DNA of 64,000 nt from Propionivibrio limicola (lineage in GTDB: Bacteria > Pseudomonadota > Gammaproteobacteria > Burkholderiales > Rhodocyclaceae), in NCBI RefSeq assembly GCF_009469695.1, contig NZ_SSSR01000007.1, forward strand, positions 1 to 64,000. The letters are read 5' to 3'. Below the pieces are notes generated by a model. That model worked only from the letters and a program-made list of their open reading frames with translations. It ran no database searches and was not told the origin of the DNA. Below are positions 5,894 to 59,679 of this stretch, piece by piece (within the stretch, counting starts at the first letter, position 1; each line of letters starts with the position of its first letter). Made by a program: the position numbers and the translations under genes.

Positions 5894-7840
5894 TTAGCAG
5901 GCTTCCGCCTCGATTTGCTCGGAGAGCAGCAGCCACTTTTCTTCGCATTCGGCGAGCGCGTCGTTGACCGCTTGCAACTCCAGCCCGAGTTCGCCGATTT
6001 CCTGCGGCGAGAGCGGTTCCGCGAGGCGGGTTTCGAGGTCGGATTTCTGCGTTTCCAGTTCGGCCATGCGCGTTTCGACCTTGCCGAGGTCGCGCTTCAT
6101 CGCCTTCATCTGCGGCGTGATTTTCTTGTTCGCGGCGGGGGGCGGCGCGACCGGGGCGGCGGCTGATGTTGTGGCCTTTTCTTCCTTGAGCGAGGTTTTG
6201 AGTTCCTCGCGCGCTCGTTTGGCTTCGTCGAGCAGGAATTGCTGGTAGTCGTCGAGGTCGCCGTCGAACGGGCCGACGCCACCGCGCGTGACGAGCCAGA
6301 ACTCGTCGCAGACGGCGCGCAGCAGGGCGCGGTCGTGGCTGACCAGCATCACCGTGCCTTCGAATTCGTTGAGCGCAACGGCCAGCGCCTCGCGCGTCGC
6401 GAGATCGAGGTGGTTGGTCGGTTCGTCGAGCAGCAGCAGGTTCGGGCGTTGCCAGACGAGCATGCACAGCACGAGGCGCGCCTTTTCGCCGCCGCTCATC
6501 GTGCCGACCGGTTGTTTGACCATGTCGCCGCTGAAATTGAACGAGCCGAGGAAGTTGCGCAGATCCTGCTCGCGGCCCGATTCACCGTCCGGCAGCGCTT
6601 CCTTGGCCAGCCGCACCATGTGTTCGAGCGGGTTGTCCTGCGGGCGCAGCACGTCGAGTTCCTGCTGCGCGAAATAGCCGATCTTCAGGCCCTTGCCTTC
6701 GGTGACGGTGCCGCCGAGCGGGGCCAGCGTGCGGGCGATCGTCTTGACCAGCGTCGACTTGCCCTGGCCGTTGGCGCCGAGGATGCCGATGCGCTGGCCG
6801 GCGTTCACCGTGCGCGTTGCCTTGTTCACGATGACGGTCGGCGGGGTGCCGGCCGGCGCGTCGTCGGGAGCGGGATAGCCGCAGTCGGCGTCGCGCAGGA
6901 CCAGCATCGGGTTGGGCAGGTTGGCCGGTTCCTTGAATTCGAAGGTGAAGTCGGCGCTGGCCAGTACCGGCGCGATCTTTTCCATGCGTTCGAGCGCCTT
7001 GACCCGGCTTTGCGCCTGCTTGGCTTTCGTCGCCTTGGCCTTGAAGCGGTCGATGAATTTCTGCAGGTGGGCGATCTTGTCCTGCTGCTTGGCGTAGGCG
7101 CTTTGCTGCAATTCAAGCTGCATCGCCTGTGTTTCCTCGAAGGTCGAGTAGTTGCCGCCGTAGCGGGTCAGCTTGCCGCTGTCGATGTGCAGCGTGACGT
7201 TGGTGATGGCGTCGAGGAATTCGCGGTCGTGGCTGATGACGAGCAGCGTGCCGTCGTAGCGCTTGAGCCAGGCTTCGAGCCAGACCAGCGCGTCGAGATC
7301 GAGGTGGTTGGTCGGTTCATCGAGCAGCAGCAGGTCGGATGGGCACATCAGTGCACGCGCCAGTTGCAGACGCATGCGCCAGCCGCCGGAGAAACTGTTG
7401 ACCGGGTTTTCGAGCTCGGTGACCTTGAAGCCGAGGCCGAGAATCAGCGCTTGCGCCCGCGCTTCGGCGTCGTGCGAACCGGCGTCGTGCAGCGTCATGT
7501 AGGCGTGCGCCATGCGCTCGCCGTCGCCGGAGGCTTCGGCCGCGGCGACCTCGTCCTGCGCAGCTTTCAGGCGCGTATCGCCCTCGATGACGAAGGCCGT
7601 CGCGCTTTGCGCCGTTTCCGGCATCTCCTGCGCCACCTGCGCCAGCCGCCACGAAGGCGGCATGAAGAATTCGCCGCCGTCCTCGTGCAGGTTGCCGTTG
7701 ATCAAGGCGAACAGCGACGACTTGCCGGCGCCGTTGCGCCCGACGAGGCCGGCTTTCTCGCCGGGATTGATCGTGACCGACGCGTTTTCGAGCAATACCT
7801 TGGCGCTGCGGCGCAGGGTGACATTCTTGAGGGTAATCAT
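5894..7840 (-). CDS. yheS: ABC-F family ATPase, YheS type
   Basis: Soluble ATPase of 648 aa with two ABC domains and no membrane segment. ABC-F proteins act on the ribosome, mostly at the E site. Domain 1 has Walker A GRNGAGKSS, signature SFSGGW and Walker [13 protein letters not shown]; domain 2 has GANGQGKST, TMSGGE and [12 protein letters not shown]. The domains are joined by the charged linker of the family, and a coiled-coil tail (about 540-640) follows. Size and tail match YheS rather than YbiT, which is encoded separately at 20381. The precise ribosomal role of YheS is not settled. Confidence 0.88.
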   Translation of the reverse strand: MITLKNVTLRRSAKVLLENASVTINPGEKAGLVGRNGAGKSSLFALINGNLHEDGGEFFMPPSWRLAQVAQEMPETAQSATAFVIEGDTRLKAAQDEVAAAEASGDGERMAHAYMTLHDAGSHDAEARAQALILGLGFKVTELENPVNSFSGGWRMRLQLARALMCPSDLLLLDEPTNHLDLDALVWLEAWLKRYDGTLLVISHDREFLDAITNVTLHIDSGKLTRYGGNYSTFEETQAMQLELQQSAYAKQQDKIAHLQKFIDRFKAKATKAKQAQSRVKALERMEKIAPVLASADFTFEFKEPANLPNPMLVLRDADCGYPAPDDAPAGTPPTVIVNKATRTVNAGQRIGILGANGQGKSTLVKTIARTLAPLGGTVTEGKGLKIGYFAQQELDVLRPQDNPLEHMVRLAKEALPDGESGREQDLRNFLGSFNFSGDMVKQPVGTMSGGEKARLVLCMLVWQRPNLLLLDEPTNHLDLATREALAVALNEFEGTVMLVSHDRALLRAVCDEFWLVTRGGVGPFDGDLDDYQQFLLDEAKRAREELKTSLKEEKATTSAAAPVAPPPAANKKITPQMKAMKRDLGKVETRMAELETQKSDLETRLAEPLSPQEIGELGLELQAVNDALAECEEKWLLLSEQIEAEAC

Positions 7841-13374: not shown

Positions 13375-13599
13375 ATGGCCACAACTCACGTAAACGCCCG
13401 AGTGCAGAAGCACCGCGCAGCCCTGCGCATGGCCGGGCTGCGCCCGGTTCAGATTTGGGTGCCCGACACGCGCCGGCCCGGCTTCGCCGAAGAATGCCGG
13501 CGACAATGCCGACTCGCGGCTCAGGCAGATGCCGCCGACACCGATATGCAGCACTTCATGGACGAGGCCTTGGCCGACGTGGACGGCTGGACTGAGTGA
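13375..13599 (+). CDS. MazE-family antitoxin (DUF3018 type)
   Basis: Small antitoxin of 74 aa that would neutralise the toxin encoded directly downstream. The ATG at 13375 follows GAGG at good spacing; the longer open frame from 13216 is rejected because it would run through the promoter and operators. The pattern RVQKHRAALRMAGLRPVQIWVPDTR is shortened here: RPVQIWVPD is the family core, an N-terminal DNA-binding part, and the acidic C-terminus (DEALADVDGWTE) should wrap the toxin. Its stop overlaps the toxin start (TGATG), the usual coupled layout. Confidence 0.85.
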   Translation: MATTHVNARVQKHRAALRMAGLRPVQIWVPDTRRPGFAEECRRQCRLAAQADAADTDMQHFMDEALADVDGWTE

Positions 13600-13922
13600 T
13601 GCGCGGCGACCTCGTTACCATCGCCATGCAAGGCGATTTCGGCAAGCCACGTCCCGCCTTGATAATCCAGTCCGATCAGTTTGACGAACACGCGAGCGTC
13701 ACGGTGCTACCCGTGACCAGCACGCTCGTTGCAGCTCCCTTGTTCCGTGTCACGGTGCGGCCGAGCACGGCGAACGGTCTCCAAAAGCCATCGCAGGTGA
13801 TGGTCGACAAGGCCATGACTGTGAAACGGGATAAGGTTGGCCAAGCCTTCGGGCGCATTGACGCTGATGCACTGCTCGAAGTCGAACGTTGCTTGGCCGT
13901 GTTTTTGGGGATCGCTAAATGA
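13599..13922 (+). CDS. MazF/PemK-family toxin endoribonuclease
   Basis: Toxin of about 107 aa that in this family cleaves mRNA at short sequence motifs. The family elements are GDLVTIAMQGDFGKPRPALI (nucleic-acid loop with the GKPRPALI signature), TVLPVTSTL with the catalytic Thr, and SQVMVDKAMTV, followed by the GRIDADALLEVERCLAVFLGI helix. All appear intact, so it is probably active. GTG at 13596 is an alternative start. It is translationally coupled to the antitoxin, and its stop is only 39 bp before the first CRISPR repeat, with no terminator between them. Confidence 0.88.
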   Translation: MRGDLVTIAMQGDFGKPRPALIIQSDQFDEHASVTVLPVTSTLVAAPLFRVTVRPSTANGLQKPSQVMVDKAMTVKRDKVGQAFGRIDADALLEVERCLAVFLGIAK

Positions 13923-13961: not shown

Positions 13962-14855
13962 GTTGTAGCTCCCTCTCTCACCCCGGAAAGCTACAATGTC
14001 AACGATTTGACGGTCACGGCGCCTGAGGTTGTAGCTCCCTCTCTCACCCCGGAAAGCTACAATCGATCGTTGTAGATAGCCATCAAACGGTCTGTTGTAG
14101 CTCCCTCTCTCACCCCGGAAAGCTACAATAATCGCAGTCGTCTCGCTTGCCGTCGCGTTGTTGTAGCTCCCTCTCTCACCCCGGAAAGCTACAATGTTTT
14201 TCAAGATCGGCACAACGCCGGAGCAGTTGTAGCTCCCTCTCTCACCCCGGAAAGCTACAATTCGATCCACACGCGGCACTTTATAGGTGTAGTTGTAGCT
14301 CCCTCTCTCACCCCGGAAAGCTACAATACTACACCCGGAAGGGTGGCGTTCTCCTGTGTTGTAGCTCCCTCTCTCACCCCGGAAAGCTACAATCATCTTC
14401 GTCGAAGCCTTCGCTGTCTGACTGTTGTAGCTCCCTCTCTCACCCCGGAAAGCTACAATCCATTTAGGTTTCGGCCCCTTGCCGCCATGGTTGTAGCTCC
14501 CTCTCTCACCCCGGAAAGCTACAATAGGTGCGCATGAGCAAGAAGGGCGAGCGCTGTTGTAGCTCCCTCTCTCACCCCGGAAAGCTACAATTCCAGCACA
14601 TCGACTGATGCATTGGCATAAGTTGTAGCTCCCTCTCTCACCCCGGAAAGCTACAATTCTTGCCCTGGCCGTTGGCTACGAGAAGAAGTTGTAGCTCCCT
14701 CTCTCACCCCGGAAAGCTACAATTCCTGACAATCAACCTGCCGAGCCAAGAGGGTTGTAGCTCCCTCTCTCACCCCGGAAAGCTACAATTGCAAAGCAGC
14801 ACAGTACGCAAGAATGAAGGTTGTAGCTCCCTCTCTCACCCCGGAAAGCTACAAT
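13962..14855 (+). CRISPR. type II-C CRISPR array: 14 repeats, 13 spacers
   Basis: Fourteen 36-bp repeats, beginning GTTGTAGCTC and ending AGCTACAAT, occur every 66 bp at 13962, 14028, 14094 and so on to 14820. All 14 look identical, and all 13 spacers are exactly 30 bp and unique. The repeat closely resembles the Neisseria meningitidis II-C repeat, and its orientation (crRNA made from the plus strand) follows from that match and from the tracrRNA. The repeat ends in the hexamer TACAAT, usable as a -10, but the preceding TG of the extended -10 known in Neisseria is AG here. No degenerate terminal repeat marks the old end. No A+T-rich leader precedes the first repeat. Confidence 0.98.
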
Positions 14856-14866
14856 AGACCTCCCCA

Positions 14867-14900
14867 AAATTCCCGCCCGGCGTGAGCTGGGCGGGAATTT
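14867..14900. terminator. bidirectional terminator between array and cas2
   Basis: A perfect 12-bp stem, AAATTCCCGCCC (14867-14878) with GGGCGGGAATTT (14889-14900), around a 10-base loop. T runs follow in both directions (longer on the plus strand). It separates the convergent array and cas operon transcripts. Confidence 0.85.
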
Positions 14901-14917
14901 TTTCTGAAAAATCCGTG

Positions 14918-15250
14918 TCAGAAAAGTAGCATTTGTTCGGCTGTGACCGTTTTTTCTTGAAAAAGGCGCATGCCGACGAGCAGACGGATGCCGGCGAACT
15001 GCTTTTCAGTGACTGTCATGCAACGGACGGAGCCGGCGGGAGGAAGGCTGTCTACCAAACGCTTGAGGTGTTTTTCTTGATCGTCCGAACCATTGAGCAG
15101 GCGACCGTAGACGGACCACTGGATCATGTCGTAACCGTCGTTGAGCAAGAAGCGCCGGAATTGAACGTAGGCGCGCTTTTCGGTTTTTGTGACCATCGGT
15201 AGGTCGAAGAAGACAATCAGTCGCATGAAACGTCGCGTCTCCCTGCTCAT
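14918..15250 (-). CDS. cas2: CRISPR-associated protein Cas2
   Basis: Small partner of Cas1 in the spacer-acquisition complex, 110 aa with a ferredoxin-like fold. The conserved metal-site Asp is D16 in IVFFDLP, followed by RAYVQFRRFLLNDGY and VYGRL segments typical of Cas2. The ATG at 15250 is 2 bp after the cas1 stop, so the genes are tightly coupled. It is the last gene of the operon cas9-cas1-cas2. No cas4 or csn2 follows, as expected for subtype II-C. Confidence 0.95.
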   Translation of the reverse strand: MSRETRRFMRLIVFFDLPMVTKTEKRAYVQFRRFLLNDGYDMIQWSVYGRLLNGSDDQEKHLKRLVDSLPPAGSVRCMTVTEKQFAGIRLLVGMRLFQEKTVTAEQMLLF

Positions 15251-15252
15251 GT

Positions 15253-16155
15253 TTAATAGTCCAGCGTGTGTGTTCTGAGTCCAATCAGGGAAGGCAATTC
15301 GAGATGGCTATCTTCTTGCTCGAAAAGTCGCCCAAGGCTCTCCACTGCGTATTCGATTGCCGACATGACAGACATCTTGCCCTGTGGCATCGCGAGGTCG
15401 ACATTGAGCAGGGCAACCAGATCGGCTTTGTCTTTTGGTGAAAGATCGCCTTCTGTACTTGGGGGATTCTTTGCAACATGCAGATCGACCACGGGGCGAA
15501 ATGGTTCGATCAGGTCGTCAGCAAGGTTGAAGGCGTTTTGCTCGCTGGCATGGAAAATACCCAGCGGAGGATGCAGACCGTGGGCGACAAGGCCGCGCGC
15601 AATTGCTCCACGGAGAACAGCGTAGCCATAATCGAGCGCAGCATTGATCCAGCGCTCTTCGGCACGGTAGAAACCGGGGCCGAAGAGTTGCGCGAAATAA
15701 AAGGCGGCGGCTTGTCCTTCGATATTGTCGACGTCGCCAGAGCGAACCCGGTTCGCGTATGAACTCAGGCGGTCCGCTCCCTGTCGCGCAGCCAAACGTA
15801 GGCATGCCGCCTGGTTTTCGATCTTGCGGCGGACGATGTTGGCCCATGCCTGTTTGGCAAGCGGCTTGCTGACGTCGAGTTGCTTTCGCATCAGGCGCGT
15901 CGTTCTCGAATGCGACAGAAAGGGCAGGAAAATGCCGTTCGGCTGATGGTTGTCGCCGGTTGCATAGAGTCCGATCCCATATTCGGCGCAGGCAGATAGC
16001 ACCGGATGGGTCAGGTTGATTTGCCGGTGGTTGAGGACGATGACGGCAATGTCTTCAAACGGGATAAAGGCCGTTTCTTCCTGCTCGATAGCGAGCGAGA
16101 AGTGCTCCCGACGCAGACGGGCTGGCCGGGAGATCATTACGCTACGCCAGCCCAC
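15253..16155 (-). CDS. cas1: CRISPR-associated integrase Cas1 (type II)
   Basis: Metal-dependent integrase that inserts new spacers at the array. The 300-aa protein begins GWRSVMISRPARL, the standard opening of type II Cas1, which supports the GTG start at 16155; the ATG at 16137 would cut this off. Metal ligands visible are E146 (DNIEGQAA), H202 (FHASEQNAF) and D213/D214 (LADDLIEPF). The start overlaps the cas9 stop by 14 bases, so translation is coupled. All catalytic residues are present, so adaptation should be functional. Confidence 0.96.
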   Translation of the reverse strand: MGWRSVMISRPARLRREHFSLAIEQEETAFIPFEDIAVIVLNHRQINLTHPVLSACAEYGIGLYATGDNHQPNGIFLPFLSHSRTTRLMRKQLDVSKPLAKQAWANIVRRKIENQAACLRLAARQGADRLSSYANRVRSGDVDNIEGQAAAFYFAQLFGPGFYRAEERWINAALDYGYAVLRGAIARGLVAHGLHPPLGIFHASEQNAFNLADDLIEPFRPVVDLHVAKNPPSTEGDLSPKDKADLVALLNVDLAMPQGKMSVMSAIEYAVESLGRLFEQEDSHLELPSLIGLRTHTLDY

Positions 16156-19100
16156 GGCGTGGCTCCGGTTGCGCCGGGTAGATATGGCCGAGGGTGTCGA
16201 CGTGGAGTTTCTCTAATGCCAAGGCGGTTTTTACGCCAATCCCTTCAAGCATTCCATCTTTGCCCACCTGCTGATTTCGGTCATGTACCCAAATGTTTAG
16301 ATTTCCTGTCCCACGATGGCAACTCGAGTAATAGCCAATAATTGGTTGTTTGCCTTTTTGTGTAACTCTGACCAGATCGTTCGGATAAAGCGAGAAACAC
16401 CAGTCAAACGTCTCGTCGATCAGCGTCCATTCGCCTTCGTCCTTGGCCTGCACAATCGCCCGGTTTGGCAACACGGTCACTTTGTGGTGCACATAGACTG
16501 GCACGAGATGGAATTTGCCCGCTTTCGTGAAAACATCCACCCGCAACATGCTGTCGTTTTTTGCGATGCCGCCCCGAACAGGAATGCCGGAGAGCTTGTC
16601 GATGAGCATCGTGACGCTACGCACAACCGGGCCGGTCGGGTTTCCATCCCGGTCGGGTTTACGAAGCGGATTGTCGGGTGGAAAAGCCTTCTCTCCCTTG
16701 CCTCCATGTGCATTCAGGCGTTCCCGAATGGCGGCGTAGAGTTTTTCGTTCCGGTGCGGATCAATTAGCTTGTCAATGTCTTTCAGGCTCAGGCTGGCCA
16801 GCGGTACTTTCTGCGTTACGCTGCCTAGTTGTTGAAACCGTGCCGGTTGCGCGTAGATGGTGTCCTTGTGTGCGGCACCGCCATTGCGCCGTTGCGGCGC
16901 GCGGGAGACGAACAGGGGGAGTAGTGCGTCGAGCGCGGCATCGTCGTAGGTGCCAAAGCGTTCTATATCGGCACGAAGCTGCATGCGGTCATCTGTTTTG
17001 AGACGGGATTCAAGCTCATGGCGGAAGTGCGACCACGGTTCCGGAAAGTGCTGTTTCAGTTGTCGGAATTTGGCGGGGTTGATGATTTCGCCTGTGGTCG
17101 TGTCGATAAAGCCGTCACGAACCTGATGTAATTCCCGCGTGCGTGAATAATCGGCCAGACGTTTGACCATGCCATGCGAGCAGGCGGCGATGACGGCGGC
17201 GTCCAATGCGTGATGGCGGTCACTCTCGCTGCGGATTTTGTTGATTCCCCAGCGCGCACGCAAAAAGGCGGTCATTTGTCCGCTGAGAACGACACAGCGC
17301 TTGACCTCGCTGCCGTCTGCGAGTTGCAGGTAGCGCTCGACATGGTTTTTGAAGAATTTGCAGATGTAGCGGGTGTCGTTCAGGTTGCGCTCCTTGAACT
17401 CTTCAGCCTCTTTGCTTCCGAACTCCTTGCGCAACAAGCGGCTGCGTTTCGCTAACCGGTAGGCCTTGTTTGTTTCAACGAACACCACAAATCGCTGCCA
17501 GCGCGGGCTGTTTTCTGCTCCGCCAAGATATTCATACGGTGTGCGATTGCCTTTGTCGCGATTTTCCCGGGCGAGAACGAGTACTTTGTTGTTCTTGCCA
17601 TCGTCGAAACTGCGCGAGTAGGGGAGTGCATGGTCGATTTCGACGTAACCGGCTTCGAGCAAACGGTCGAGGTCGATGGCCTCCTGGGAATAGGCGCATT
17701 TGCCCAGCTGTTCGCGGTAAAGGCGAAATTTCTCGAATTCGCCGCCTTTGGGCTCTTGCCCGAATTCTTCGATGAACAGGGTTTTGTCGCGTTCATTTCG
17801 GGTGCGGTATTCGTCCTGCTCTTTCTTGATCTTGTTGCGTTCATCAAGCGGCCGGGACAAATCACGCGCCATTTCGATATTTACCGCCATCGGCGATCCA
17901 TAACGCCGCGCAATCGCGTTAACAACCTTACGCGCCTGATTCAACGCTCTTAAAACCACCGGATTGCGTGGAATATCAGCATCTTCAGCAAAAAGCATAC
18001 GGCCATCGGAGTCTCGTCCTTTGTATAGCGGCGGCAACGTGCGGAATTTGCTTTCATCCGGTGCGTGCAACTGGCTGTGATGATAGCCGGCGGAAACACA
18101 GGCTTCGTCGTAGCGTTGCCCCTGTTCCATGAACGGGACAATTTTGCGAAGCACCTTCAGCGACAGCGCATGGAACTTATCAAAACGAATGTCGAGCAGT
18201 GCTTCGACCATCCTTTCCCGATTGGGCAGCTCCAGTTTTTCCAGCTCGGTGCGGGCCTCGTCGTCTTCTTTGTAGATACTGAGAATTCGGGCGATGTCGT
18301 CGAGTGTATGCGGATTGCCGCCATTAGCCGCGCCAGCGAGACTTTCCCATTCGGTTTCCAGTCCGGCTCTTTTCAGGGTGTTGCGAAGCTCCTGCCAGGC
18401 GGGCAAACGAATCAGCTTTTCCGACTTGGGGTCTTTGCCTTCTTTGGCCGCACGCAGTCCCGCAAATTCGAACGATTCTGGCAGCAGGCCTTTTTTGACG
18501 AGTGCGCTATGCAGTTGCTTGTAGGTCAGATCGCTGGCTTGCAGATAGGGCAGTGGAAGAGCTATCGCGCGTTCTTCAGCATTGAGGGGGCGGGTGACGC
18601 CGTCGCACACGATGCGCAGGTTGTTCAGTCGGGTCAGCCAGACCTGGCGCTCGGCGGTGAAACTGGCTTTGGGCGCGCGGTGTTCTGCTTTTTCAAATGT
18701 GCATTTGCCCAGCATTTTGAGCAAGGCGGCTCCGGAAAGTGCCGGCCTCTGCCGCCAGAACAAGCCGTTTTTTCGGTCACCATTGCCCAGAATGGTCATT
18801 TCCAGGGGGGCGCTTGTATATGGGTTGCCGAATTTGCGCTGGAGAGAAAACAGCGTTTTCAGTTCCTCGCCAAGCAGCAAACGAGAGATCGCTTTTGTGT
18901 ATTCGCCCTGTTTGTTGCGCTGTGCGTTGGGAAACTCGGTGAGCAACATTTCGGCAACCGAGCGATAGCTTTTTTCTTCCATGAGGCGACGTGTGCCAGA
19001 TAGCCCACGTTTGACCCGACCGCCTTCGCCTTTCGCATCACCTTCCGCCTGTTTTTCCTCGGCACGGCTAACCCAGTGAAAGCCCCGGTGTTTGCAGAGG

Positions 19101-19471
19101 TGATAGATAACCCGCGCCCACTCATCTCTGTTCAGCTTTCTGTCCAACCCCTCAACGCGCAGTTTCCACGGAGACACTTCTGCCGGATTGCTCGGCTGAA
19201 AATGCCGCTTATCCTCGATCAGGCCATGGCGCTTGAGTTCTCGTGTCAGTTTTTTTAGACGCCATGCGCGTTGGGCAAGGCGATGGCGTGCGAGACGAGC
19301 CATGCGCCGGGTGAGGTTTAGCGGATCACCTTCCTTGGCCGTTTCCGCCTTGTCGAAAGCGCGGACGCCTAAGTCGATTAGGCGGTTTTCACCAAGCAGG
19401 CACCAGCCGACGGAAGCGATGCCTATATCCAGTCCGAGTGTGTACGCGTGTTGCATAAATTGACCTGGCAT
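16142..19471 (-). CDS. cas9: compact type II-C Cas9 nuclease
   Basis: RNA-guided DNA endonuclease of 1109 aa, close in size to Neisseria Cas9 (1082 aa) and much smaller than the Streptococcus enzyme. Numbering from 19471: RuvC-I D15 in LGLDIGIAS; an Arg-rich bridge helix (about 55-90); a recognition lobe (about 90-500); RuvC-II E533 in NIEMARDL; HNH His H614 in EIDHALPYS with the downstream GKNNK Asn; RuvC-III H754 and D757 in RHHALDAA; and a C-terminal PAM-interacting region (about 850-1109). Every catalytic residue is present. The ATG at 19456, five codons in, has a better AGGT site and may be the true start. The PAM cannot be read from sequence. Confidence 0.97.
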   Translation of the reverse strand: MPGQFMQHAYTLGLDIGIASVGWCLLGENRLIDLGVRAFDKAETAKEGDPLNLTRRMARLARHRLAQRAWRLKKLTRELKRHGLIEDKRHFQPSNPAEVSPWKLRVEGLDRKLNRDEWARVIYHLCKHRGFHWVSRAEEKQAEGDAKGEGGRVKRGLSGTRRLMEEKSYRSVAEMLLTEFPNAQRNKQGEYTKAISRLLLGEELKTLFSLQRKFGNPYTSAPLEMTILGNGDRKNGLFWRQRPALSGAALLKMLGKCTFEKAEHRAPKASFTAERQVWLTRLNNLRIVCDGVTRPLNAEERAIALPLPYLQASDLTYKQLHSALVKKGLLPESFEFAGLRAAKEGKDPKSEKLIRLPAWQELRNTLKRAGLETEWESLAGAANGGNPHTLDDIARILSIYKEDDEARTELEKLELPNRERMVEALLDIRFDKFHALSLKVLRKIVPFMEQGQRYDEACVSAGYHHSQLHAPDESKFRTLPPLYKGRDSDGRMLFAEDADIPRNPVVLRALNQARKVVNAIARRYGSPMAVNIEMARDLSRPLDERNKIKKEQDEYRTRNERDKTLFIEEFGQEPKGGEFEKFRLYREQLGKCAYSQEAIDLDRLLEAGYVEIDHALPYSRSFDDGKNNKVLVLARENRDKGNRTPYEYLGGAENSPRWQRFVVFVETNKAYRLAKRSRLLRKEFGSKEAEEFKERNLNDTRYICKFFKNHVERYLQLADGSEVKRCVVLSGQMTAFLRARWGINKIRSESDRHHALDAAVIAACSHGMVKRLADYSRTRELHQVRDGFIDTTTGEIINPAKFRQLKQHFPEPWSHFRHELESRLKTDDRMQLRADIERFGTYDDAALDALLPLFVSRAPQRRNGGAAHKDTIYAQPARFQQLGSVTQKVPLASLSLKDIDKLIDPHRNEKLYAAIRERLNAHGGKGEKAFPPDNPLRKPDRDGNPTGPVVRSVTMLIDKLSGIPVRGGIAKNDSMLRVDVFTKAGKFHLVPVYVHHKVTVLPNRAIVQAKDEGEWTLIDETFDWCFSLYPNDLVRVTQKGKQPIIGYYSSCHRGTGNLNIWVHDRNQQVGKDGMLEGIGVKTALALEKLHVDTLGHIYPAQPEPRRGLA

Positions 19472-19504
19472 TATTCAAATGCAGGTAGAATACGCCCGTT
19501 TGTA
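19460..19504. promoter_or_regulatory. overlapping tracrRNA and cas9 promoter region
   Basis: Rightward, TAGAAT (19486-19491) would place a start near 19498, at the tracrRNA 5' end; TTGACC (19460-19465) is upstream but at 20 bases, longer than ideal. Leftward, the complement of the anti-repeat supplies TACAAA (19504-19499), about 28 bp before the cas9 ATG at 19471. The two -10 elements are only 7 bp apart. Assignment is inferred. Confidence 0.45.
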
Positions 19505-19595
19505 GCTTTCCGGGGTGAGAGCCGTTGCTACAATAAGGTGTCATCGAAAGATGACGACCGAATCCGGCCCGACAGGGAAACCTGTCGGGCCTTTT
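19498..19595 (+). ncRNA. tracrRNA of the type II-C system
   Basis: The anti-repeat (about 19500-19534) pairs with the CRISPR repeat over 22 uninterrupted bases (TTGTAGCTTTCCGGGGTGAG and on), then a 5-base mismatch (CCGTT) and again GCTACAA. It is followed by AATAAGG, a hairpin GTCATC-GAAA-GATGAC (19540-19555), and an 11-bp terminator hairpin GGCCCGACAGG-GAAA-CCTGTCGGGCC (19566-19591) with TTTT. Order and motifs (CCGTTGCTACAATAAGG) match the Neisseria tracrRNA. It is divergent from cas9. Confidence 0.93.
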
Positions 19596-59298: not shown

Positions 59299-59341
59299 GT
59301 GAGGACGACCTCACCTCTCCAATTCGTTTGGGGACGGCCCC
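59299..59341 (+). promoter_or_regulatory. guanidine-II (mini-ykkC) riboswitch
   Basis: Two small hairpins with the diagnostic ACGR tetraloops: GTGAGG-ACGA-CCTCAC (59299-59314) and GGGG-ACGG-CCCC (59330-59341), joined by a 15-base linker. The ribosome site GAGGAG at 59351-59356 follows at once. This matches the mini-ykkC class, which binds guanidinium through loop-loop pairing and turns on translation. The gene downstream encodes a Gdx-type exporter, as known for this class. Confidence 0.92.
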
Positions 59342-59361
59342 GCTTGTTTGAGGAGCGTTTC

Positions 59362-59679
59362 GTGAATTGGATAATCCTTGTCGTCGCCGGGCTGCTTGAA
59401 GTCGGTTGGGCGATTGGACTCAAGTACTCCGAAGGTTTTACGCGACTGTGGCCCTCGGTCTGGACCAGTCTGTCCATGCTGCTCAGCGTTGGCTTGCTCG
59501 GCGTCGCCATGAAATCACTGCCGGTGGGTACGGCCTATGCGGTCTGGGTGGGTATCGGCGCCATCGGGACCGCCGTTATGGGCATCGTTCTATTCGGCGA
59601 GCCGGCCAACTCCACCCGATTGCTGAGCCTGCTTCTGATTTTCGCCGGTATCGTTGGCCTCAAGTTGTCGGCGCCTTGA
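59362..59679 (+). CDS. gdx: guanidinium exporter Gdx (SugE), SMR family
   Basis: Four-helix small multidrug resistance-family transporter of 105 aa. The conserved Glu of helix 1 is E13 in [14 protein letters not shown], and the [19 protein letters not shown] segment (19 residues) is the Gdx-type helix 3. Members with this signature export guanidinium in exchange for protons. The start is GTG at 59362, placed 5 bases after GAGGAG and 20 bases after the guanidine-II riboswitch, which supports the substrate. Confidence 0.93.

What the first reader, a model, noticed from the sequence alone, without database searches (positions are those of the whole stretch)
13962..19595. Complete, apparently active type II-C CRISPR-Cas9 locus with a compact Cas9
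All parts are present and intact: Cas9 (1109 aa) with D15, E533, H614, H754 and D757; Cas1 with E146, H202 and D213/D214; Cas2 with D16; 14 identical repeats, 13 spacers of exactly 30 bp, and a tracrRNA with 22 paired bases to the repeat. The Cas9 is Neisseria-like in size and RNA architecture, but its C-terminal PAM-interacting region cannot be equated with a known one by eye, so its PAM may be new.
Basis: partly seen in the sequence, partly recalled or inferred. Interest (0 to 1): 0.8.

Follow-up and report, generated by a model that had tools for sequence, protein, structure and literature searches.

The report
Ordinary Neisseria-type CRISPR-Cas9 locus
A complete CRISPR-Cas9 immune locus of a well-known type in an environmental bacterium; its Cas9 shares the four main DNA-motif-reading residues of the studied meningococcal enzyme, so its target motif is probably not new.

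Summary
Parts and layout match subtype II-C of the Neisseria kind; one scan gave 54 related loci. The inference that the PAM-reading region matches nothing known, so the PAM may be new, is not supported: the domain aligns with Nme1Cas9 (120 of 250 residues identical) and keeps all four residues named as crucial there. The expected PAM is N4GATT-like. No true protospacer was found for any of the 13 spacers, so this is a prediction, and flanks of weak candidate sites are mixed. Beyond the finding, four pairs of relatives with 89-97% identical Cas9 bodies have C-terminal parts only 42-44% identical; in the three pairs aligned as DNA, identity recovers near cas1. Such discordance is already published for Neisseria. 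The window array lacks the hairpin that 18 of 25 folded arrays have at the old end. A new member of a known kind, of modest interest.

The parts
13962..14855 (+). CRISPR array: 14 identical 36-nt repeats, 13 spacers of 30 nt; crRNA strand + (inferred from pairing with the tracrRNA)
   Evidence: (Rfam CRISPR-DR34, 14 copies, 36.9 bits each)
14866..14901 (+). GC-rich terminator-like hairpin between the array and cas2, at the cas-side end of the array; 39 of 40 arrays folded have z under -2 here
   Evidence: window z -5.4
14918..15250 (-). cas2, 110 aa
   Evidence: TIGR01573 70 bits; D16
15253..16155 (-). cas1 (type II), 300 aa, overlaps the end of cas9
   Evidence: TIGR03639 277 bits; E146, H202, D213, D214
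16142..19471 (-). cas9, 1109 aa; start ATG as listed, a second in-frame ATG at codon 6 is possible
   Evidence: TIGR01865 737 bits; best PDB chains 798 bits; catalytic residues
16142..16954 (-). C-terminal PAM-interacting part of Cas9, with Q1008, H1052, T1055, N1057 identical to the four PAM residues of Nme1Cas9
19500..19595 (+). tracrRNA: anti-repeat with 22 consecutive pairs to the repeat (19500-19521), hairpin, terminator-like stem-loop 19566-19591; transcribed away from cas9; ends inferred
13396..13922 (+). MazE-like and MazF/PemK-like toxin-antitoxin genes next to the distal end of the array; a neighbour, not a conserved part
   Evidence: PF11455, PF02452; no relative in the related loci held

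Best explanation
A complete subtype II-C CRISPR-Cas9 immune locus of the Nme1Cas9 kind. The array and the tracrRNA are read on the + strand and cas9-cas1-cas2 on the - strand. crRNA pairs with tracrRNA, is loaded into Cas9, and guides cutting of DNA that carries a PAM 3' of the protospacer. Cas1-Cas2 add new spacers at the repeat next to cas2. The PAM is predicted to be of the Nme1 type (N4GATT or a relaxed form with G at position 5). Shown: intact genes and motifs, repeat identity, repeat-tracrRNA pairing, the hairpins, identity of the four PAM residues. Inferred: expression, cleavage, acquisition end, PAM.
For: All parts intact. Cas9, type II Cas1 and Cas2 models above their cut-offs. Relatives have cas1 and cas2 after cas9 and, in 41 of 54 loci, an array on the same side and strand (which searched that strand alone). 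PI part 120 of 250 residues identical to Nme1Cas9 with the four contacts conserved; 221 bits to the Nme1-type chains against 80 bits to 6je3. Acquisition end: the cas-side terminal repeat equals the consensus in 41 of 42 arrays (L007, the other, is masked there), while the distal repeat is mutated in L005, L025, L026 and L032 and a decayed further unit precedes L034. Published II-C arrays acquire at the last repeat (PMC12080349, abstract and passages). In the own genome, at E 0.1, the only spacer match outside the array is 22 of 24 bases at 6758-6781.
Against: No confident protospacer for any window spacer. Weak candidate sites give mixed flanks at positions 1-8: spacer 8 CCAGGTCT and spacer 7 CGAAGCAT have G5 and T8 but not GATT; spacer 11 CGATGCGC has G5 only; spacer 9 TGATCCGC has neither. 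Sites homologous to spacer 12 of L017, another QHTN relative, have CACCGACT and GACCGACT. None reads GATT; all lie in or beside coding-like DNA and are homologues or chance. Distal repeats are unmutated in 22 of the 26 arrays marked complete, the window among them, so the polarity evidence rests on few arrays. The promoter scan finds no sigma-70-like site in the array, so the repeat-internal promoters reported for II-C are not supported here.
Confidence: 0.75

Rival explanations
1. The system is intact but its PAM is not of the N4GATT or G5 kind, because residues outside the four named contacts differ: the domain is only 48% identical to that of Nme1Cas9.
For: 48% PI identity leaves room. Wei et al. 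report that orthologues with H or N at the H1024 site prefer R (A or G) at position 5, and degenerate PAMs in several (PMC9433092). None of the candidate flanks reads GATT, and that of spacer 9 lacks G5.
Against: All four contacts are conserved, and the one published orthologue with the same four, BdeCas9, reads N4GATT.
Confidence: 0.2
2. The locus is a silent or decaying remnant: genes open but no longer acquiring or transcribing.
For: The array finds no convincing spacer match in the phage and plasmid collections. The distal structured element seen in 18 of 25 folded arrays is missing (window z -0.8). No promoter-like site in the array by a simple scan.
Against: All 14 repeats are identical, catalytic residues are intact and the frames are open. 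Failed spacer searches are common for environmental bacteria (general knowledge).
Confidence: 0.07
3. The MazEF pair beside the array is a guard module that makes the CRISPR locus addictive.
For: mazF ends 39 bases before the first repeat.
Against: tblastn finds no MazE or MazF relative in the related loci held (E 1e-3), although many of those loci are short. No regulatory link is visible.
Confidence: 0.03

Closest known systems
Neisseria meningitidis Nme1Cas9 subtype II-C system (PDB 6jdv named Nme1Cas9 in PMC9433092; 6jdq and 6kc8 recalled as the same enzyme)
   Same: Cas9 aligned over residues 10-1100; catalytic motifs; all four PAM-contact residues
   Different: 45.6% identity over 813 aligned residues of 10-879 and 48% over 250 in the C-terminal part
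Related loci, for example L053 (UBA1934), L023 (Zoogloea oleivorans MAG), L003 (Candidatus Desulfobacillus denitrificans)
   Same: Cas9 74-77% identical overall, Cas1 80-84%, Cas2 89-95%, near-identical repeats
   Different: PAM-contact residues QDTN, ADTA and ANTA instead of QHTN; L023 C-terminal part only 53% identical while its body is 81%
Nme1Cas9 orthologues of Wei et al. 2022 (BdeCas9 with the same four residues)
   Same: same four PAM residues as BdeCas9
   Different: their 29 orthologues are 59.6-70.4% identical to Nme1Cas9; this one is about 46-48%
Nme2Cas9 (6je3, 6jfu; name recalled, not from a call)
   Same: same overall Cas9 architecture
   Different: its C-terminal domain matches the window's weakly, 80 bits against 221 for the Nme1-type chains

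Membership tests
CRISPR-Cas subtype II-C | cas9 with RuvC and HNH nuclease motifs | tested here: met
   TIGR01865 737 bits; D15, E533, H614, H754, D757
CRISPR-Cas subtype II-C | cas1 and cas2 of type II, and no csn2 or cas4 in the operon | tested here: met
   by the ORF list, cas9, cas1 and cas2 fill the stretch between array and tracrRNA; neighbours scanned are MazE-like, PemK/MazF, GntR and DctP. No genome-wide search for csn2 or cas4 was run
CRISPR-Cas subtype II-C | repeat array with a matching tracrRNA | tested here: met
   22 consecutive pairs read
CRISPR-Cas subtype II-C | RNA-guided DNA cleavage and immunity | not testable with these tools
   no protospacer found and no experiment possible
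CRISPR-Cas subtype II-C | repeat-internal promoters and acquisition at the 3' repeat (reported for II-C) | tested here: inconclusive
   no sigma-70-like site in the array; distal-end repeat decay in 4 of 26 complete arrays fits 3' acquisition
Nme1-type PAM recognition (N4GATT) | residues equivalent to Q981, H1024, T1027, N1029 | tested here: met
   Q1008, H1052, T1055, N1057
Nme1-type PAM recognition (N4GATT) | GATT at positions 5-8 of protospacer flanks | tested here: inconclusive
   no true protospacer; weak sites give GTCT, GCAT, GCGC, CCGC for window spacers 8, 7, 11, 9 and GACT twice for L017

The most novel reading that the evidence does not exclude
In this group of relatives the C-terminal (PAM-interacting) part of Cas9 behaves as an exchangeable cassette. 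It is replaced by recombination from about the conserved FVSRA motif to about the end of cas9, within an otherwise near-identical locus, so lineages change PAM while keeping Cas9 body, Cas1-Cas2 and repeat. The window's QHTN set is one of at least three separate arrivals at an Nme1-like reading head.
Probability: 0.6. Interest if true: 0.45.

Novelty: new member of a known kind. Interest (0 to 1): 0.3.

Why it matters
The locus itself adds one more compact II-C Cas9, probably with an already known PAM, so its tool value is modest. The wider set matters a little more. Close relatives with exchanged PAM-reading domains give natural pairs in which the effect of that domain can be tested with almost everything else constant.

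Tried and rejected
Protospacers: the array as one stretch against phages and plasmids, 150 family genomes, 28 genus genomes and 399 order genomes; spacer 8 alone against phages (best E 2). Limits: one search scored at most 3 and at most 2 first-look candidates per genome, so spacer sites could be missed there. Exact 20-23-mers of seven window spacers (4, 9, 8, 13, 1, 12, 5) gave 0 matches in viral contigs; spacers 2, 3, 6, 7, 10 and 11 were not scanned there. Candidate sites for spacers 7, 8, 9 and 11 were not counted as targets: spacer 8's lies in an H-NS-like ORF (named by eye); the others were judged by eye as cellular genes, without a family search. The microvirus hits (E 0.3 and 0.9) are to the repeat, and its third hit (E 3) straddles a spacer and a repeat; all taken as chance.

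The first array parser found nothing because of an offset error of mine; one search replaced it. MazEF as part of the system: rejected because it does not recur. An empty-site test with the neighbouring DctP gene was swamped by paralogues. A characterised near-identical Cas9: none in PDB by sequence and none seen in the listings. PMC10671331 cites a Rhodocyclaceae genome among its Cas9 orthologue references, and PMC7606464 lists an enzyme 'Rsp'; I could not tell whether either is a relative, since supplements were not open (passages only).

Dropped rows: 6 of 55 Cas9 rows were empty at the four sites, L046 could be read at one only, and L047 was a wrongly picked frame. The tree used 46 of 54 loci plus the window, without L011, L042, L043, L045, L046, L047, L049 and L051; 11 of its 44 inner branches have support under 80. 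Folding used 25 of 42 arrays on the distal side and 40 of 42 on the cas side; the rest were near contig ends or held N.

Full report
Observation. Fourteen identical 36-nt repeats and 13 spacers of 30 nt lie at 13962-14855, and Rfam places each repeat in CRISPR-DR34. cas2, cas1 and cas9 follow on the other strand, with family models above cut-off and all named residues in place. The tracrRNA lies just upstream of cas9 and divergent from it: its anti-repeat at 19500-19521 pairs with the repeat over 22 consecutive bases (by eye), followed by a hairpin and a terminator-like stem-loop. The stretch folds far better than shuffles (z -6.5, 0 of 200).

What it is. One scan of genome contigs with the Cas9 gave 54 related loci, most with betaproteobacterial record titles. 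Of the 54, 41 had a parsed array; with the window this made 42 arrays and 626 spacers, most of 30 nt. Thirty-four of 150 family genomes, the own one included, match the array at E 0.01, some by single repeats only, and 7 of 28 genus genomes, the own one included, have a Cas9 match. The locus is an ordinary member of a well-populated group.

PAM. By sequence, residues 845-1100 match Nme1Cas9 (E 2.2e-64), 120 of 250 aligned residues identical. Wei et al. (PMC9433092, parts 1 and 2 of 6 read) name Q981, H1024, T1027 and N1029 as crucial in Nme1Cas9 and report that BdeCas9, the only one of 29 with the same four, reads N4GATT. The window Cas9 has the same four: Q1008, H1052, T1055, N1057. Of 55 Cas9 rows, of which 6 were empty at these sites, only the window, L015 and L017 show QHTN; the commonest set is ADTA, 10 rows. 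By Wei et al. D at the H1024 site goes with C at PAM position 5, and H or N with A or G.

Protospacers. No confident target was found for any window spacer. Weak sites, with their 3' flanks, positions 1-8: spacer 8, 27 of 30 in an H-NS-like ORF, CCAGGTCT; spacer 7, CGAAGCAT; spacer 11, CGATGCGC; spacer 9, TGATCCGC. Spacer 12 of L017 matches, 28 of 30, an annotated cobT-like gene of Rhizobium phage RHEph10 and sites in three viral contigs, flanks CACCGACT and GACCGACT. So G5 with T8 is seen for spacers 7 and 8 and for L017, not for 9 and 11, and GATT for none. These are few and either homologues or chance; they do not test the PAM.

Array polarity and ends. The repeat next to cas2 equals the consensus in 41 of 42 arrays (L007 is masked there). 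The far-end repeat is mutated in 4 of the 26 arrays marked complete and unmutated in 22; a decayed further unit precedes L034. A terminator-like hairpin lies between array and cas2 in 39 of 40 arrays folded, the window included. At the far end 18 of 25 arrays folded have z under -2; the window does not (z -0.8), and a MazE-MazF pair lies there instead. Feussner et al. (PMC12080349, abstract and passages) report that II-C systems acquire at the last repeat and may have a terminator or guide-sequestering hairpin before the first. PMC12638026 (passages) also notes 3' acquisition. So the pattern is known, and the window array may have lost its old end (inference).

C-terminal exchange. On a tree of 47 Cas9 bodies (residues 10-800), the residue at the H1024 site needs at least 20 changes and QHTN at least 3 (quick tree, SH-aLRT only, no shuffled control printed). 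Pairs with similar bodies differ in the C-terminal part: L005/L041 97% against 43%, L004/L054 93% against 44%, L007/L037 89% against 42%, L013/L038 90% against 42%. L017/L044, also looked at, is 91% and 81%: no swap, although its contact sets differ. At DNA level, for three of the four pairs (L007/L037 was not included), identity falls from roughly 0.85-0.95 to about 0.5 near the FVSRA motif and recovers about 800 columns later, near the start of cas1. The exchanged type of L041 is itself a distant match to Nme1-type chains, 102 bits, and 86 bits to 6je3. For the window, L053 is 77% in the body and 76% in the C-terminal part, while L023 is 81% and 53%, so L023 is the likelier exchanged one. 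Gasiunas et al. (PMC7606464, passages) already note that in N. meningitidis PI domains share 52% while the rest is 98% identical. I saw no report for this group in the listings.

Verdict. A new member of a known kind.

Noticed in passing
window 13396-13922: MazE-like antitoxin and MazF/PemK-like toxin genes end 39 bases before the first CRISPR repeat, where 18 of 25 folded arrays have a hairpin; no relative in the related loci held.
   Followed up: partly
window 59299-59679: A Guanidine-II (mini-ykkC) riboswitch match (40.9 bits) at 59299-59342 overlaps the start of an ORF for a small membrane protein that looks by eye like an SMR-type exporter (not scanned).
   Followed up: partly
L005/L041, L004/L054, L013/L038 (DNA and protein), L007/L037 (protein): Cas9 bodies 89-97% identical but C-terminal parts 42-44% identical, with a shift near a conserved FVSRA motif: apparent cassette exchange of the PAM-reading domain.
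   Followed up: yes
window 6758-6781: Spacer 11 matches 22 of 24 bases here, and the same part of the array matches in six other genus members; probably a shared cellular gene and chance rather than self-targeting.
   Followed up: partly
L017 array, spacer 12: Matches an annotated cobT-like gene of Rhizobium phage RHEph10 and sites in three viral contigs at 28 of 30, with N4GACT flanks.
   Followed up: yes
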